NCBI GenBank assembly: GCA_902780385.1
Contig: CACZFF010000044.1
Location: 1-37,092 of the forward strand
DNA: 37,092 bases
Origin: an uncultured Lachnospiraceae bacterium
GTDB lineage: Bacteria; Bacillota; Clostridia; Lachnospirales; Lachnospiraceae
Direction: 5' to 3'
Shown here: positions 24,639-36,080 of the stretch, one piece after another
Layout of the letters: every line of letters begins with the position of its first letter
Numbering within the stretch: position 1 is the stretch's first letter
Program-made: the position numbers and the translations under genes
Notes under the pieces: generated by a model
Told to the model about the DNA's origin: nothing
The model's input: the letters and a program-made list of their open reading frames with translations, nothing else
Database searches by the model: none

Positions 24639-26615
24639 ATGTCAGATACGAAAAATCTCAACGAAGTGACTGCCGCTGAGAAAGCTGCTGTCAGCAGTGA
24701 GGAAGCAGTAAAGGCCGAAGCGCCTGCCGCCGCACCTGCAGAAGTTCCCGCAGAAGCTGTCGCTGCTGCACCTGCGCCGGAAGCCGCTCCCGCTGAAGAA
24801 GCTGCTCCCGCTCCTAAGAAACGCACGCGCAAGAAAGCCGCTGCCGAAAAGGATGAGAAGGTTGAGAAGGCCGCTGCGAAGAAACCCGCCGCAAAGCGCA
24901 CGACAAAGAAAAAATCGGACGCTGAAGCCCCCGCTGATGCGGAGAAAAAGCCCGCTGCAAAGCGCACAACAAAGAAAAAAGCGGACGCTGAAGCCCCCGC
25001 TGATGCGGAGAAAAAGCCCGCTGCAAAGCGCAAAAAAAAAAAAAAACCGGCTGCAAAACGCACCAGAAAGAAAAAGACCGAAGAAGCTCCTGTAGTCGAA
25101 GAAGTGAAGGAAGTCCCCGTAGAAGTCGTCGCTGAAGTTCCTGCAGAGCCTGAGCTTCCTCAGCCCAGAAGAAGCATCGCCTTCATCGGTTCCGAGTGCT
25201 ATCCTTTCGTCAAGACCGGCGGCCTGGGCGATGTCATGTACGCACTTCCCAAAGCTCTGATCGCGCAGAACTGCGATGTCAAAGTCATCCTGCCCAGATA
25301 TAAATGCATTCCCCAGAAGTATCAGGACAAGATGGTCTACCGCGGCGCTTTTGATATGGATCTGTGCGCGGACGGCCGTTCCTACTATGTAGGTATCATG
25401 GAATACGTCTGGGACGGCGTTGTCTATGATTTCATCGACAACGAGGAGTTCTTCAGCGAAGGCAAGCCTTATACAAACCTGATCGACGATATTCCGAAAT
25501 ACTGCTATTTCGGAAAAGCTGCCCTCGCAGCCCTCAATTACATGGACTGGATCCCGGATGTGATCCACTGCCACGACTGGCAGGCAGGTCTCGTTCCAAT
25601 CTATCTCCGCGAATTCTTCAACAATACACCGATCGGCCGTTCCAAGGTCATGATCACCATCCACAACCTGCGCTTCCAGGGTATCTATGATATCAAGACC
25701 ATCCAGTACTGGTCCGGTCTGCCGGATTATGTCTTCAATAAGGATGCGCTCAAGCAGGGCTACAATGATGCCAACATGCTCAAGGGCGGTCTGACCTACG
25801 CGAATATGATCACCACCGTCAGCGAAACTTATGCCGGCGAGATCCAGACAGAATTCTTCGGCGAGAATCTGGATGCGCATTTGCGTTATCATTCCGGCAA
25901 GCTCCGCGGCATCATCAACGGCATTGACTACGGTATGTGGGATTCCGCCAACGATTCCCTGCTGGCAGCTCCTTACGATATCGACACCGTAATTGAGAAG
26001 AAGAAAGCCAACAAGCTGGCTCTTCAGGAAGAGCTCGGCCTTGAAAAGGATGAAGGCAAGTTCGTGATCGGCCTCATCTCCCGTCTGACCAATCAGAAGG
26101 GTCTGGATCTCATCAACTCCATCGTTCCCGCCATCATGGACGGCAACACCCAGGTCGTTGTTCTGGGTACCGGCGATGACGAGTATGAGAACTCCTTCCG
26201 CGGATACGAGTATCAGTACAAGGGCAGCTTCTGCGCCAACATCATGTACGACGAGGGCAGGGCACACAAGATCTATGCAGGTTCCGATGCCCTTCTGGTT
26301 CCTTCCCTGTTCGAGCCCTGCGGCCTGACACAGCTGATCTGCATGCACTACGGTACCGTGCCGATCGTCCGCGAGACCGGCGGCCTCAAGGATACGGTTG
26401 AGCCCTACAACGAGTACACCAATGAAGGCAACGGCTTCACCTTCGACAGATATGAGGCCGGCCTCCTTCTGGATGCCATCAACAGGGCAAAGACCGTTTA
26501 CTTCACAGAGCGCGACCGCTGGGATCAGATGGTACAGCGCGATATGGCCAAGGATGTCTCCTGGGAGAATTCTGCAAAACAGTACCGCGCACTGTATGTG
26601 GAAATGACACAGTGA
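24639..26615 (+). CDS. glgA: Glycogen synthase with a histone-like N-terminal extension
   Basis: Residues about 178-658 form a standard GT5 glycogen synthase, which adds glucose from ADP-glucose to glycogen: RRSIAFIGSECYPFVKTGGLGDV (split; K192 in KTGGLGD binds ADP-glucose), HCHDWQAGLVP, TIHNLRFQG, NGIDYGMWD, GLISRLTNQKG, and SLFEPCGLTQLICMHYGTVPIVRETGGL split over the C-terminal domain. Residues 1-176 are a non-family tail: an acidic Ala/Pro/Glu part (1-58), then a Lys/Ala/Pro-rich part with KKRTRKK and AAKRTTKKK units resembling histone H1, then an acidic segment. A 22-residue unit is tandemly duplicated and a run of 15 A bases lies in the tail. The start has AGGAGG 8 bases before and there is no ribosome site near the core, so the tail is probably made. 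Its role is unknown. Confidence 0.93.
   Translation: MSDTKNLNEVTAAEKAAVSSEEAVKAEAPAAAPAEVPAEAVAAAPAPEAAPAEEAAPAPKKRTRKKAAAEKDEKVEKAAAKKPAAKRTTKKKSDAEAPADAEKKPAAKRTTKKKADAEAPADAEKKPAAKRKKKKKPAAKRTRKKKTEEAPVVEEVKEVPVEVVAEVPAEPELPQPRRSIAFIGSECYPFVKTGGLGDVMYALPKALIAQNCDVKVILPRYKCIPQKYQDKMVYRGAFDMDLCADGRSYYVGIMEYVWDGVVYDFIDNEEFFSEGKPYTNLIDDIPKYCYFGKAALAALNYMDWIPDVIHCHDWQAGLVPIYLREFFNNTPIGRSKVMITIHNLRFQGIYDIKTIQYWSGLPDYVFNKDALKQGYNDANMLKGGLTYANMITTVSETYAGEIQTEFFGENLDAHLRYHSGKLRGIINGIDYGMWDSANDSLLAAPYDIDTVIEKKKANKLALQEELGLEKDEGKFVIGLISRLTNQKGLDLINSIVPAIMDGNTQVVVLGTGDDEYENSFRGYEYQYKGSFCANIMYDEGRAHKIYAGSDALLVPSLFEPCGLTQLICMHYGTVPIVRETGGLKDTVEPYNEYTNEGNGFTFDRYEAGLLLDAINRAKTVYFTERDRWDQMVQRDMAKDVSWENSAKQYRALYVEMTQ
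24897..25046 (+). repeat. 66-bp in-frame tandem duplication and A15 run in glgA
   Basis: Units 24897-24962 and 24963-25028 are nearly identical and encode 22-residue repeats with one clear change (S to A after KKK). Immediately after, 25032-25046 is an uninterrupted run of 15 A encoding five lysines, a likely slippage site. Confidence 0.9.
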
Positions 26616-26760
26616 TCCGCCCGTCTGACCCTGCCGCCGTTTCCGCAATAACCATCTGCCGCAAAGGCGGATCCTTTGCCGCAGCGGCACACACTGCACA
26701 TGATAAATATGCAGAGCAGACAGCTGCCTGAAAAGCAGGCGGATAAAGCAGATAGAAAAA

Positions 26761-26908: not shown

Positions 26909-27238
26909 TCAGCATTTCGAATCAAGAAAGATTGTTGAGTTTGTAGATTTGACTGTATCCTTTCCTCCCGCATGTAATTCACTGCCCGCCTCGCTGCTGA
27001 CATAACCGCAGTTGTAGCATTTTGAATTGCGTCCGGACGGCATCATATTCCCGCATACAGGGCAGGGAACAACCGGATGCCCTCTCATATGTGTCGCAAG
27101 AGGAACTGTGATCTCCTCTCCGCAGATCGGGCAGATCTCCTTTTTGACAACTCTTCTTGTTTCTCCACCGGTGACTTTTCCCAGATCGTCCGGAGACATT
27201 TCCTGCATTCCGGCAATCTGCTTTTTATTCTTATCCAT
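26909..27238 (-). CDS. GG-leader peptide with a zinc-ribbon core (P1)
   Basis: The protein has 109 residues. Residues 1-25 (ending MSPDDLGKVTGG) match the double-glycine leader class cleaved by C39-peptidase ABC exporters. The predicted core (26-109) contains CPICGEE, a conserved THMRGH, CPVCGN and CYNCGY: six cysteines in three CxxC knuckles plus two histidines, a zinc-ribbon arrangement unusual for a secreted bacteriocin-like peptide. The C-terminus ends in a lone cysteine. AAAGGAG precedes the ATG, and a promoter lies at 27331-27358. Three other GG-leader genes lie within 6.2 kb, but no exporter or modification enzyme is in the window. It could be a secreted metal-binding peptide, a precursor modified elsewhere, or a cytosolic protein whose leader targets it to a partner. 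Confidence 0.8.
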   Translation of the reverse strand: MDKNKKQIAGMQEMSPDDLGKVTGGETRRVVKKEICPICGEEITVPLATHMRGHPVVPCPVCGNMMPSGRNSKCYNCGYVSSEAGSELHAGGKDTVKSTNSTIFLDSKC

Positions 27239-30645: not shown

Positions 30646-30906
30646 TCAGGTATCGGTCGCCATCGAAGTCAGCCCTTCTTTGACCCGGTCCATTCCGAGT
30701 GCCATTCTGTCCAGAATACCTGCCCCCGGCTGAGGACCTGCCTTTACTGACGGATCTGTTCCAATGCTGCCTGCAGAAGGGTCCTCTTTCCTGCGTACAT
30801 TATCAATCGCTTCCGGATCATCCCTCCAGGCAGCGCCGCCTGTCACCTGCTCCAGATCTTCCGATTCAAGTCTTTTTGAAATATCCCGCTTCTTCTCTTC
30901 TCCCAT
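30646..30906 (-). CDS. GG-leader peptide P2
   Basis: The protein has 86 residues. The leader (1-24) ends in LESEDLEQVTGG, a clear double-glycine leader with the conserved ED-L-x-x-V pattern. The core (25-86) is hydrophilic, lacks cysteine, has VRRKEDPSAGS, a Pro/Gly-rich middle, and ends in a likely amphipathic helix (ILDRMALGMDRVKEGLTSM). It shares its layout with P4 (33143-33397): an N-V-R-(R/K)-x-x-D motif about 12 residues after the GG, a Gly/Ser/Lys linker, and a C-terminal helix with Asp, Met and Arg. AGAGGAG lies 7 bases before the ATG. It is 88 bases downstream of P3 and probably shares its transcript. Function unknown. Confidence 0.82.
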   Translation of the reverse strand: MGEEKKRDISKRLESEDLEQVTGGAAWRDDPEAIDNVRRKEDPSAGSIGTDPSVKAGPQPGAGILDRMALGMDRVKEGLTSMATDT

Positions 30907-30994: not shown

Positions 30995-31282
30995 TTAGAT
31001 AAATTCAAGGCCTGTGCTGTCGACCCATGCCTCCTGATTATTGTAAAATGCCAAGATATATTTTCCCGACCTGCGGCCCAGATCCACTGTGATATATTCA
31101 CCGCAGGGTATGGTAAACTGGCCGCTCGGCACGAAACTGCCGCCCGATTTGGAACAGGCGGGAAGCCCCTTGGCCGCTTTGACCATGGCCGAACTCCACT
31201 GCCCCGAACCGCCTCCGTACATGCCGCCCGCAATCTCTTTCAACTTCTCATCACTGATTCTGTTTTCTTCCATATTTGACAT
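30995..31282 (-). CDS. GG-leader peptide P3 with a Gly-rich, two-cysteine core
   Basis: The protein has 95 residues. The leader (1-20) ends in ISDEKLKEIAGG, again the double-glycine pattern. The core starts MYGGGSGQ, has two cysteines (in PACSKSGG and TIPCGEY) that could form a disulfide, and a beta-rich C-terminal half (SFVPSGQFTIPCGEYITVDL, KYILAFYNNQEAWVD). It looks like a small secreted beta-domain rather than a short helical bacteriocin. AAAGGAAA precedes the ATG. A minus-strand -10 TATAAT at 31341-31346 is the likely promoter, with a poor -35. First of the two-gene P3-P2 unit. Confidence 0.8.
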   Translation of the reverse strand: MSNMEENRISDEKLKEIAGGMYGGGSGQWSSAMVKAAKGLPACSKSGGSFVPSGQFTIPCGEYITVDLGRRSGKYILAFYNNQEAWVDSTGLEFI

Positions 31283-33142: not shown

Positions 33143-33397
33143 TTATTTGCGGCCGGCAAATCTGTTCAGCCGTTTCATTATCTGATCGACTCCGTCGTCT
33201 CCTTTTCCGGCTGAGCCGGCAGCTGATTCTTTTTTCTTTCCGGGATCATCCCCGGCAGCATGATTTGTTTTGTCCTTGCCTTTGCGGACACCATTAACTG
33301 CCACGTAAGCATCAAACAAAATGGCTCCGCCATTCACATCTTTCAGGTCCTCCGGATCGAGATTCTCAATATTTTCAATTTTCTTCTTCTCTTCCAT
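33143..33397 (-). CDS. GG-leader peptide P4
   Basis: The protein has 84 residues. The leader (1-24) ends in LDPEDLKDVNGG. The core (25-84) begins AILFDAYVAVNGVRKGKD, continues as a Lys/Gly/Asp/Ala-rich hydrophilic stretch, and ends GVDQIMKRLNRFAGRK, a probable basic amphipathic helix. No cysteine is present. Layout and the N-x-V-R-K-x-x-D motif match P2, so the two are probably distant paralogues. GGAGG lies 7 bases before the ATG. It is transcribed toward aspartate kinase and stops at a shared terminator. No exporter or maturation gene is nearby. Bacteriocin-like or signalling roles are possible but unproven. Confidence 0.82.
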   Translation of the reverse strand: MEEKKKIENIENLDPEDLKDVNGGAILFDAYVAVNGVRKGKDKTNHAAGDDPGKKKESAAGSAGKGDDGVDQIMKRLNRFAGRK

Positions 33398-34231: not shown

Positions 34232-35716
34232 TCAGGCCACCGTAATGGCCTCGTATCGCTCGGAGTTGATGATCTTCTCCATGGCCTCGACCGGATTCAT
34301 GCCGACCGTCTGCATCACCTGACGGAACACAGCGGCGGACTGGCCGCTTGCCAGCTGGACGCCCTTGCGGTTCTTGTCCGCGTGGAAGATGTCGTGCCGG
34401 CTGTTCACGTTCCAGAAGATAATGTTGGGAATAATGTAGCCGTTCATACGGTACATTTCCTCCATCATCTCATAGAAGGTCCAGTCGCGGTCGCCGCAAT
34501 AGTCTATCTCCATATCGGAAATAACGATCAGGGACTTGGGCATCTCCGCCTGCGGAACATGGTTGCGGATGGCAATCTCCAGCACATGCTCGAAGGCAGC
34601 ACGCAGATTGGTGTTGCCTGCCCAATCATTCATGTTGATGCTGCTGATCTTCTGTGCCAGAGTCTCTCCGCGGAGTGCCTGAATCCTGGATGTACCGGAG
34701 AAGGACATGAACATGTTGTGGTATGCGCCGCGGTTGCGCTCGGCAAAGTAGACCGCCAGACCGACAGATGTCGCCATGGGTCTGCCGCACATGGAACCGG
34801 AAGTATCCGCAATAACAAGGGCATTTGTGCCGGGCTCCACATAGTCGGGGAGCTGGCGCCACTGCGCCTCAAGAGCGGGGTCATTGTTCAGAGAAGCGTT
34901 TGCGAAGAAGCTGGACAAGCGGGGCGCGACCTTCTCCACAATGTCGTAAGGATACAGTGTACCGGCATGGATCTTCTCCCGGCCGGCGACGGCGCGGTTC
35001 ACAAACTGCTCGTAGCGCTCGCCGTCGTGTCTGCGGAAGGCATCGCGATAGATCATCATGGCACGGGAAGGGACCTCCGGATACCGGATCTCATTCCAGC
35101 GTCCCTCTGTCATCAGTGTCTCGATGACGCCGATTCTGCGGCGAAGCGCACGCACGATACGCTTAAAATCATATACAGAGTAGCCGAGCTTGCGGGCTGT
35201 CAGGATGCCGAGCTCTCTGGTCTTCGCGGAAGACGCATCCGCTGTCTTGATCCACTTGGCCAGCAGGGATACTGCCTTTCCGTTCTCCAGGCTGCGGCGG
35301 TCCTCCTCAAACTGGGTCTTCATGGCCGCCCACATCTCATTCTCAAGAGGAGTGCCGATCAGACAATAGAGATCGTCATAACGGCCGTAGACGCCGATCA
35401 GATCCAGGTTGGGTCGAAGCGCCTCCGGATGCATCTGCGCCATATAGCGCATGATTGTACGGAAAGTCTCCCGCTCTCCCAGTCCGCCCCGAATGTCTCG
35501 GGCGTAAAACGCGATCTTTGTCGCAAAAAGAGGGTCCATCCGGTAGGCCTCGGAGAAGAGACGCTCAATACGGACCTGGTCTGCACCGCGAAGTGCTCCG
35601 ATCACACCGAACAGATCAAGCCGGGCATCTCTGGTGGAGTTCAGCGCAACCGCTCCGTTCTCTGTTCTTACATATACACTTTCCTTTCTTGCTACCTTTG
35701 CAAATAAACCGAACAT
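34232..35716 (-). CDS. Ro60/TROVE-like DUF2828-type protein with a vWA domain
   Basis: The protein has 494 residues. The start at 35716 is set by AAAGGAGG directly upstream. Residues about 20-270 form a helical region with family motifs ENGAVALNSTRDARLDLF, FYARDIRGGLGERETFR, GRYDDLY, SLLAKWIKTADASSAKT and LYPYDIVEKVAPRL. Residues about 295-480 are a von Willebrand A domain with an intact metal site: DTSGS (D304, S306, S308), T369 in GNTN and D401 in ISDMEID. This helical-repeat plus vWA layout is that of Ro60-type RNA-binding proteins, which in bacteria bind Y RNAs and act in RNA quality control and decay. I place it in the DUF2828 branch, whose RNA binding is less established. A candidate Y-like RNA lies just upstream on the same strand. 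Confidence 0.82.
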   Translation of the reverse strand: MFGLFAKVARKESVYVRTENGAVALNSTRDARLDLFGVIGALRGADQVRIERLFSEAYRMDPLFATKIAFYARDIRGGLGERETFRTIMRYMAQMHPEALRPNLDLIGVYGRYDDLYCLIGTPLENEMWAAMKTQFEEDRRSLENGKAVSLLAKWIKTADASSAKTRELGILTARKLGYSVYDFKRIVRALRRRIGVIETLMTEGRWNEIRYPEVPSRAMMIYRDAFRRHDGERYEQFVNRAVAGREKIHAGTLYPYDIVEKVAPRLSSFFANASLNNDPALEAQWRQLPDYVEPGTNALVIADTSGSMCGRPMATSVGLAVYFAERNRGAYHNMFMSFSGTSRIQALRGETLAQKISSINMNDWAGNTNLRAAFEHVLEIAIRNHVPQAEMPKSLIVISDMEIDYCGDRDWTFYEMMEEMYRMNGYIIPNIIFWNVNSRHDIFHADKNRKGVQLASGQSAAVFRQVMQTVGMNPVEAMEKIINSERYEAITVA

Positions 35717-35734: not shown

Positions 35735-35880
35735 ATGTATAATGCTGCAGTCCCCGGAAAAAACGCGAAGGCGTTTGTTTTCACAGGGACTTGGACGTTC
35801 TGTTCCAAGAACATGACCCATTACGTGCGGTTTCCCGCATTCGCCTGCCTGACAAGCAGGCCTTGTGATTGCGTGTCGTC
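35735..35880 (-). other. Chain of hairpins between the Y-like RNA and the Ro-like gene
   Basis: On the minus strand four to five stems follow each other: GCCTGC/GCAGGC, TGCGG-gaaa-CCGCA, CTTGG/CCAAG, and an outer AGTCCC/GGGACT enclosing AAACGC-cttc-GCGTTT followed by TTT. No gene is seen. It may be a structured leader of the Ro-like mRNA, part of the upstream RNA, or a second RNA. Confidence 0.45.
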
Positions 35881-35908
35881 ATATGATATTTGCTGTCAGG
35901 GCCACAGT

Positions 35909-36080
35909 AAAAAAATTTTGGTCAAAACAAAGTGCTGTCTAATCAAAAGCTCAGACTTCACGAATTTTGACAGCAATCGGCGGACTGGGTTCGAACCAGC
36001 GGGCTGTTTTTTCCTTTATCAGAATACATCCGATCTTCTCCCCTGTCATTCAACCGCTGGTATAAGATTCGGCACCGTGA
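35909..36080 (-). ncRNA. Candidate Y-RNA-like, tRNA-mimicking RNA
   Basis: Minus-strand fold. A canonical T-arm: stem GCTGG (36000-35996), loop TTCGAAC, stem CCAGT (35988-35984). An acceptor-like stem: GATCGG (36035-36030) with CCGATT (35980-35975). A D-arm-like CTG/CAG (36022-36020 with 36006-36004) has GG in its loop. Outside are GACAG/CTGTC (36047-36043 with 35973-35969) and a bulged stem GGTGCCGAA (36076-36068) with TTTGACC (35926-35920), similar to the Ro-binding stem of Y RNAs, then T7 (35915-35909). G-U pairs in three stems would be A-C mismatches on the other strand, favouring minus. No intact tRNA fits: the gap before the T-arm is too short. No good promoter was found, and a 7-bp alternative pairing exists (36060-36054 with 36002-35996). 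Alternatively a tRNA 3'-end relic. Confidence 0.4.

What the first reader, a model, noticed from the sequence alone, without database searches (positions are those of the whole stretch)
35909..36080. Possible bacterial Y RNA with a tRNA-like module beside a Ro60-like gene
Seen: on the minus strand a canonical T-arm (TTCGAAC loop, 5-bp stem), an acceptor-like 6-bp stem, a D-arm-like hairpin with GG in its loop, outer stems, and a bulged helix GGTGCCGAA/TTTGACC before a T7 run. Three stems use G-U pairs that would be A-C mismatches on the other strand. Known: bacterial Y RNAs mimic tRNAs through D- and T-loop-like elements and are often encoded near Ro homologues. Inference: this is the RNA partner of the downstream DUF2828/vWA protein, which would extend Ro-Y RNA biology to that family. 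Weak points: short helices, no clear promoter, an alternative pairing, and the possibility of a tRNA 3'-end relic.
Basis: partly seen in the sequence, partly recalled or inferred. Interest (0 to 1): 0.82.

Follow-up and report, generated by a model that had tools for sequence, protein, structure and literature searches.

The report
New Y-RNA-like family beside DUF2828

Summary
The idea behind it holds. DUF2828 has a Ro60/TROVE-like predicted fold, and DUF2828 genes are accompanied by RNAs sharing one core: a covarying 7-bp helix, about two bases, ACAGCAA, a variable interior, a closing strand, then G. ACAGCAA is the most widespread upstream 7-mer in 154 non-redundant loci (121 loci; 8 on the reverse strand). 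Helix positions left out of the search pair in 85% of cases against 15-17% in controls. A second set gave 25 of 29 loci; a strict pattern hit once in 299 genomes, beside DUF2828. The core occurs alone, often around anticodon-like or T-arm hairpins, and, circularly permuted, inside whole tRNAs. The window keeps one intact unit (35812-35906, minus). None of 12 TROVE loci has the box within 600 nt upstream; RNAs beside the bacterial ones carry another core. Best reading: a Y-RNA-like class for the DUF2828 branch of Ro proteins. Binding is inferred; the role (decoy or tether in tRNA damage or decay) is a hypothesis.

The parts
34232..35716 (-). DUF2828/DUF7788 (vWA) protein gene, Ro60-like predicted fold; start ATG at 35716 with AAAGGAGG before it
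   Evidence: Pfam; PHROG 850 RNA-binding protein; AlphaFold model and Foldseek. The longer frame to 35821 would overlap unit W1; the start at 35716 is the one its neighbours share
35812..35906 (-). Unit W1: intact stand-alone RNA unit of the ACAGCAA class (helix TGTGGCCC with GGGTCATG)
35890..35896 (-). Conserved ACAGCAA box of W1
35844..35860 (-). Hairpin CCTGC-TTGTCAG-GCAGG inside W1, 7-nt loop, stem kept in orthologues
   Evidence: one compensatory change, in L006; one unpaired cell, in L004
35826..35839 (-). Hairpin TGCGG-GAAA-CCGCA inside W1, where other units have a T-arm
35976..36007 (-).
   Evidence: alignment with L002; coordinates
35921..35971 (-). Hairpin-prone spacer, partly conserved with L002, without the box; unclassified
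36021..36049 (-). Promoter-like ATGACA-N17-TATTCT
36044..36064 (-). Conserved block over the -35 region (TATACCAGCGGTTGAATGACA), a possible regulator site
   Evidence: 10 of 18 close orthologues; in the own genome this place and one weaker one, backward control 1

Best explanation
The window carries a small ribonucleoprotein locus. A promoter at about 36020 would drive a leader with a decayed tRNA-type unit and one intact RNA unit (35812-35906), then the DUF2828 gene. The unit belongs to a widespread RNA class tied to DUF2828 proteins. SHOWN by computation: the shared core (7-bp covarying helix, about two bases, ACAGCAA, closing strand, then G), its strand-specific linkage to DUF2828 genes in bacteria and phages, its two topologies (helix ends free, or helix capped and inserted into a whole tRNA between D-arm and anticodon arm), and the Ro60-like predicted fold of DUF2828. 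INFERRED: the protein binds helix plus ACAGCAA much as Ro60 binds the basal stem of Y RNAs, leaving the tRNA-like part exposed. HYPOTHESIS: the exposed part engages enzymes that act on tRNA (anticodon nucleases, modification or decay enzymes), so that the particle works as decoy or tether during tRNA damage or decay. For W1 itself tRNA mimicry is weak; it may be mainly a protein-binding unit.
For: ACAGCAA in 121 of 154 non-redundant loci within 1 kb upstream, reverse strand 8; within 600 nt 118 against 5. Out-of-sample helix test: 252 of 353 sites have the seed complement against 436 of 1540 random positions; next two positions both paired 85% against 17% and 15%. 223 of 353 sites closed by at least 7 bp against 7.0% of random positions. 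Position -8 swaps AT 78, TA 68, GC 56; G after the helix in 205 of 232. tRNA-type: 7-bp acceptor across the site in 59 of 67, control 7.9%. Second set 25 of 29, reverse 1. Strict pattern: 1 hit in 299 genomes, beside DUF2828. Named phages: closed or tRNA-type sites in 12 of 14. Fold: only two PDB matches at E<=0.001, a TROVE domain and Ro.
Against: No expression or binding data. 19 of 154 loci lack the exact box within 1.5 kb upstream and 0.8 kb downstream, among them close orthologues (L009, L014, L015) where the gene follows the promoter with no unit; the second DUF2828 copy of the same genome (L029) lacks it. W1 alone: fold z only -1.99 and one compensatory change, equalled by 92 of 500 shuffles. 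The strongest non-coding transcript of Listeria phage cka15, which also has DUF2828, lies outside the units. Vibrio TCU-VP04 and Salmonella SE_PL have no unit in the stretch held. Decoy or tether function rests on analogy.
Confidence: 0.72

Rival explanations
1. Cis-regulation: the units are leader elements by which DUF2828 binds its own mRNA and limits its synthesis; the tRNA-like parts are processing sites.
For: Most units are upstream on the coding strand, close to the gene (156 sites within 250 nt); W1 lies between promoter and start codon.
Against: 35 of 154 loci have the box within 1 kb downstream of the gene; in Staphylococcus S-CoN_Ph6, LeBron, Snenia and SUSP2 the closed units are only downstream; tRNA-type units are whole tRNA-shaped molecules.
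Confidence: 0.15
2. Ordinary tRNA-array debris: phages and bacteria with tRNA clusters leave tRNA pieces near DUF2828, and the reader's T-arm is one of them.
For: ARAGORN finds 459 tRNAs in 79 of 154 loci; the window's T-arm element is indeed a remnant.
Against: A fixed box with a covarying helix, and its insertion at one place in whole tRNAs, are not debris; the T4 tRNA cluster has no exact box.
Confidence: 0.06
3. One reading: the 35909-36080 element itself is a working Y RNA.
For: T-arm present; T-run at its 3' end.
Against: Lost 5' half and core relative to L002; 5' arm upstream of the promoter; fold z -0.88.
Confidence: 0.03

Closest known systems
Bacterial Y RNAs (YrlA type) with TROVE/Rsr proteins
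   Same: Encoded beside a Ro-fold protein gene; basal helix plus tRNA-like part in many units; the tRNA-type permutation idea also fits the RNAs beside bacterial TROVE genes
   Different: Other core: ACAGCAA beside a covarying helix instead of GAGGCG...GGGTTACTTCG or near variants seen beside 4 of 4 full bacterial TROVE genes; the box is within 600 nt upstream of 118 of 154 DUF2828 genes and of 0 of 12 TROVE genes. The label YrlA type for those RNAs is mine; Rfam names none of them
'Ro-like RNA binding protein' of phages (LeBron gp53 and others; PHROG 850)
   Same: Same protein family; the Ro-like label is not new
   Different: In the regions opened for LeBron and Snenia no RNA is annotated at the ACAGCAA units just after the gene
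Listeria phage cka15 non-coding transcripts, proposed as Y RNAs (PMC12282133, passages)
   Same: DUF2828 gene (CKA15_055, HHpred match to Rsr) with suspected Y RNAs upstream
   Different: The one region given with coordinates, 26,236-26,727, has no box; three box-bearing units lie closer to the gene, about 25,290-25,560. Coordinates of the other two abundant regions were not in the passages seen

Membership tests
Bacterial Y RNA (YrlA type) | Encoded beside a Ro60-family gene | tested here: met
   Beside DUF2828, whose model matches TROVE and Ro structures
Bacterial Y RNA (YrlA type) | Long stem formed by the 5' and 3' ends (PMC8394870, passages) | tested here: met
   Closing helix in 223 of 353 sites, random 7.0%; W1 has it
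Bacterial Y RNA (YrlA type) | tRNA-like domain with D, T and acceptor arms (PMC8394870, passages) | tested here: inconclusive
   Met for tRNA-type units (59 of 67 with acceptor closure); T-arm in 48 of 223 closed units; W1 has no T-loop or D-arm
Bacterial Y RNA (YrlA type) | Core sequence seen beside bacterial TROVE genes (GAGGCG...GGGTTACTTCG or near variants) | tested here: not met
   Seen at 4 of 4 full bacterial TROVE genes; not seen in W1, which has the ACAGCAA core
Bacterial Y RNA (YrlA type) | Binding to the Ro protein; modification by DusA and TruB | not testable with these tools
   No wet-lab data
Ro60/TROVE protein | TROVE domain by sequence (PF05731) | tested here: not met
   Not among the four Pfam families found at E<=0.01; no PDB relative by sequence at E<0.3
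Ro60/TROVE protein | Ro60 fold: helical-repeat ring plus vWA domain | tested here: met
   Foldseek: 9kop TROVE domain E 1.3e-6, TM 0.54/0.57; 1yvr Ro E 7.7e-6, TM 0.47/0.45, over 525-563 columns at 14% and 11% identity; predicted model, so an indication, not proof
Ro60/TROVE protein | Metal-site residues of the vWA domain (pattern recalled) | tested here: met
   D304, S306, S308, T369, D401 invariant in 19 sequences
tRNA gene or tRNA 3' relic at an integration junction | Intact tRNA, or a tRNA 3' end next to an integrase | tested here: not met
   No tRNA; the relic aligns with a tRNA-type unit of L002 at the same locus. Only seven window proteins were put to Pfam, none an integrase; the rest of the window was not scanned for one

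The most novel reading that the evidence does not exclude
A second lineage of Y RNAs, unlike YrlA in core sequence, serves the DUF2828 branch of Ro proteins in bacteria and many phages. One binding core is used in two circular permutations, with free ends either at the core or at a tRNA acceptor, to present a varied set of tRNA look-alikes. Their anticodon-like loops favour A or U at position 36 before A37 (45 of 53 against 278 of 459 real tRNAs nearby, p = 4e-4), which would suit decoys or sensors for enzymes that recognise such loops, for instance anticodon nucleases in phage-host conflict.
Probability: 0.35. Interest if true: 0.9.

Novelty: new variant of a known kind. Interest (0 to 1): 0.78.

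Why it matters
DUF2828 proteins occur in 674 of 50,697 phage records and in 31 of 299 genomes of the window's family, the own one included, and are annotated as hypothetical, DUF2828, vWA, RNA-binding or Ro-like. An RNA partner with a short recognisable core would turn a domain of unknown function into a testable ribonucleoprotein system, give Ro-Y RNA biology a second branch, and account for some unannotated sequence in phage tRNA arrays. One core in two circular permutations shows how a protein-binding module and a tRNA body can be combined. It also makes an open question testable: what tRNA mimicry by Y RNAs is for.

Tried and rejected
Rfam gave no Y RNA hit, but it gave none for the RNAs beside TROVE genes either, so its silence is no evidence of novelty. 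A second helix inside the units is not supported as a general feature (at least 5 bp: 53 of 223 against a shuffled mean of 34.6, maximum 44). W1 as a specific anticodon mimic: rejected, since the window's loop TTGTCAG is shared by none of the four orthologues.

A WYL/WCX regulator upstream in the remote clade: only matches below Pfam's cut-offs in the 4 proteins tested; kept as a lead. T4 rnaC and rnaD as relatives: no exact ACAGCAA in 4.5 kb. The abundant non-coding RNA of Listeria phage cka15 as expression evidence: rejected for the region with coordinates. An inverted copy in the window (TTTTGACAGCAATCG on the plus strand inside the remnant): not supported, because the minus strand aligns colinearly with L002.

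TROVE control, corrected on re-check: a first script tested helix closure only at the 8 phage TROVE loci. With the 4 bacterial ones added, 7 ACAGCAA sites lie between 1.5 kb upstream and 0.8 kb downstream (where held) of the 12 genes; 3, all bacterial, meet the loose 7-bp criterion, more than the 6.5% seen at random positions in those four loci would give. None of the 3 is followed by G; two lie in open frames after the gene, and the third pairs with the other core's GTTACTT. None of the 7 is within 600 nt upstream. The contrast with DUF2828 stands, but '0 of 12 closed' would have been wrong.

Literature: DUF2828 with 'Y RNA' gave no paper; DUF2828 alone gave 4 papers, on plants by their titles; further searches. 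Papers likely to hold earlier descriptions (Chen 2014 RNA; Sim and Wolin 2018; Sim 2020) are not held, so prior partial description, above all of phage Y RNAs, cannot be excluded.

Full report
The minus strand at 36000-35984 has a clean T-arm. The rest of the proposed RNA does not hold. A promoter-like ATGACA-N17-TATTCT lies at 36049-36021, with a conserved block over its -35 box that is found, within 5 mismatches, in 10 of the 18 closest orthologues (L001-L018) and in none on the reverse strand. Transcription would start near 36014 (inferred), so the 5' arm GGTGCCGAA (36076-36068) would not be in the RNA. The stretch folds no better than shuffles. Aligned with L002, whose DUF2828 protein is 95% identical, the window lacks the acceptor 5' strand, D-arm, core helix and anticodon arm that stand there; it keeps ACAGC, the T-arm and the acceptor 3' strand. 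So the element is a worn 3' remnant.

WHAT LIES BESIDE IT. Directly downstream, 35906-35812, is an intact unit: TGTGGCCC-TG-ACAGCAA ... GGGTCATG, with two hairpins inside. L002, L003, L004 and L006 have the same unit; in L003 and L006 the box has one changed base. On these five sequences 98.5% of cells pair, against 30-44% when slid by 1-3 columns, but with only one compensatory change, which 92 of 500 shuffles equal. The case for an RNA rests on the wider family, not on W1 alone.

THE FAMILY. Of 196 loci with at least 700 nt upstream, 154 are non-redundant, 74 of them from viral contigs or phage records. In 1 kb upstream, coding strand, ACAGCAA is the 7-mer present in most loci: 288 sites in 121 of 154; on the reverse strand 9 sites in 8. 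Its 104 anagrams average 15.8 sites (the highest, CAGCAAA with 138, overlaps the motif). The next most widespread 7-mer is GGTTCGA, the T-loop: 98 loci against 5. Sites pile up near the gene (156 within 250 nt, 83 in the next 250); within 600 nt, 118 of 154 loci have one, 5 on the reverse strand. 35 of 154 loci have the box within 1 kb downstream.

THE HELIX. To avoid choosing what is then counted, only the five bases before the box (gap 0-2) were matched to a complement downstream, and the next positions outwards were then read. 252 of 353 sites have such a complement, against 436 of 1540 random positions and 27 of 80 reverse-strand ACAGCAA sites. The next two positions both pair in 85%, against 17% and 15%. 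Over 232 units with a gap of 1 or 2, position -8 is AT 78, TA 68, GC 56 and paired in 93%; position -9 is paired in 91%; sliding the strand gives 16-54% there. A G follows the closing strand in 205 of 232. Closure by at least 7 bp holds for 223 of 353 sites and 215 of 3080 random positions. This is a covarying helix with a fixed box beside it.

TWO TOPOLOGIES. The 223 closed units lie in 110 loci; 130 sites are not closed. Closed units hold T-arms in 48 cases (shuffled mean 1.1) and, T-loops left out, anticodon-like arms in 58 (shuffled mean 4.9, maximum 10). Among distinct arms 45 of 53 have A or U at position 36, against 278 of 459 tRNAs found by ARAGORN in the same loci (p = 4e-4); the arm pattern demanded pyrimidine 32, T33 and a purine at 37, the tRNAs were not so filtered. 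That such loops carry t6A or i6A at A37 is recalled, not tested. Of the 130 unclosed sites 67 have a T-arm downstream; in 59 of these a 7-bp acceptor closes across the site (control 7.9%), and in 29 a hairpin directly before the box has the helix strands in swapped order, as in GTCATG-TTC-GTGAC (control 7.7%). The second form is a circular permutation of the first: a whole tRNA with the core inserted between D-arm and anticodon arm.

CHECKS ON OTHER SETS. A strict pattern in 299 genomes of that family gives one hit, at G480:C70:5789-5843, 420 nt before that genome's DUF2828 match; backward control 0. It misses most units by design, the window's included. In a Bacillota-wide draw PF11443 is in 4 of 249 genomes, the own one included; of the other three, two have two units each and one has none in the stretch held. 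Of 14 named phages, 12 have a closed or tRNA-type site in the stretch held; Vibrio TCU-VP04-AIR2 and Salmonella SE_PL do not.

THE PROTEIN. DUF2828 plus DUF7788; PHROG 850 'RNA-binding protein'. The AlphaFold model (pLDDT 81.4, pTM 0.80) has only two PDB matches at E<=0.001: a TROVE domain and the Ro autoantigen. Some phage members are already annotated Ro-like, and a Listeria phage paper reports an HHpred match to Rsr and the protein in purified particles (PMC12282133, passages).

AGAINST TROVE/YrlA. PF05731 is in 6 of 249 Bacillota genomes. Four of those loci hold a full TROVE-length frame and all four carry an upstream RNA with GAGGCG followed by GGGTTACTTCG or a near variant; L208 and L213 lack such a frame and were left out. 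With eight phage TROVE loci, 0 of 12 have ACAGCAA within 600 nt upstream. Seven sites lie farther off or downstream; three bacterial ones meet the loose 7-bp criterion, none with the G, two in open frames after the gene and one pairing with the other core. So the DUF2828 RNAs resemble Y RNAs in placement and plan but not in core.

WHAT IT MAY DO. Passages on YrlA describe a stem that holds Rsr and a tRNA-like part that engages PNPase (PMC8394870), and suggest that YrlA might compete for an anticodon nuclease (PMC7790460). The look-alikes here, their several copies, and RNA ligase genes near DUF2828 in P100 and SE_PL fit a part in tRNA damage or decay, as decoy or tether. RtcB is in the window's genome, but on other contigs. 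This step is inference.

LIMITS. No expression or binding evidence. 19 of 154 loci lack the exact box, among them close orthologues. The cka15 transcriptome's region with coordinates lacks it. The main Y RNA papers could not be read, so the novelty claim is limited to: no description was found in the searches listed.

Noticed in passing
L029 and L030, upstream of the second kind of DUF2828 gene (L029 is the window's own genome, contig C26): These copies have no ACAGCAA upstream in the stretch held, but the two loci share a long, GC-rich, hairpin-prone upstream region, perhaps another RNA.
   Followed up: no
L019, L022-L025, L104, L106, L108, L112, L115 and others, upstream: A motif like TTCGCAACTTTTTTTCC stands before the units in 20 of 154 loci; in L024, L026, L104 and L106 the preceding gene shows WCX/WYL similarity below Pfam's cut-offs: a possible regulator and its site.
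   Followed up: partly
L210 and L212 (TROVE loci), upstream of the gene: The RNAs beside these TROVE genes contain an anticodon-like CTGTTAA loop and a T-arm, with acceptor and D-arm in permuted order in L210; CTGTTAA occurs in 8 of 12 TROVE loci counted. CTGTTAA is also the commonest mimic loop beside DUF2828.
   Followed up: partly
window plus strand, about 35962-35976: The plus strand inside the remnant reads TTTTGACAGCAATCG, nearly the core of L004's unit in the other direction; left unexplained.
   Followed up: partly
window 26909-27238, 30646-30906, 30995-31282, 33143-33397 (minus): Four short proteins whose N-terminal parts end in a double glycine (VTGG, IAGG, VNGG), like leader peptides of exported or modified peptides (resemblance recalled); Pfam found nothing in three and only sub-cut-off zinc-ribbon matches in the first.
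   Followed up: no
L217 1409-1547 (phage T4 rnaC): T4's small stable RNA rnaC has a T-arm and folds far better than shuffles (z -4.57), without the ACAGCAA box.
   Followed up: no
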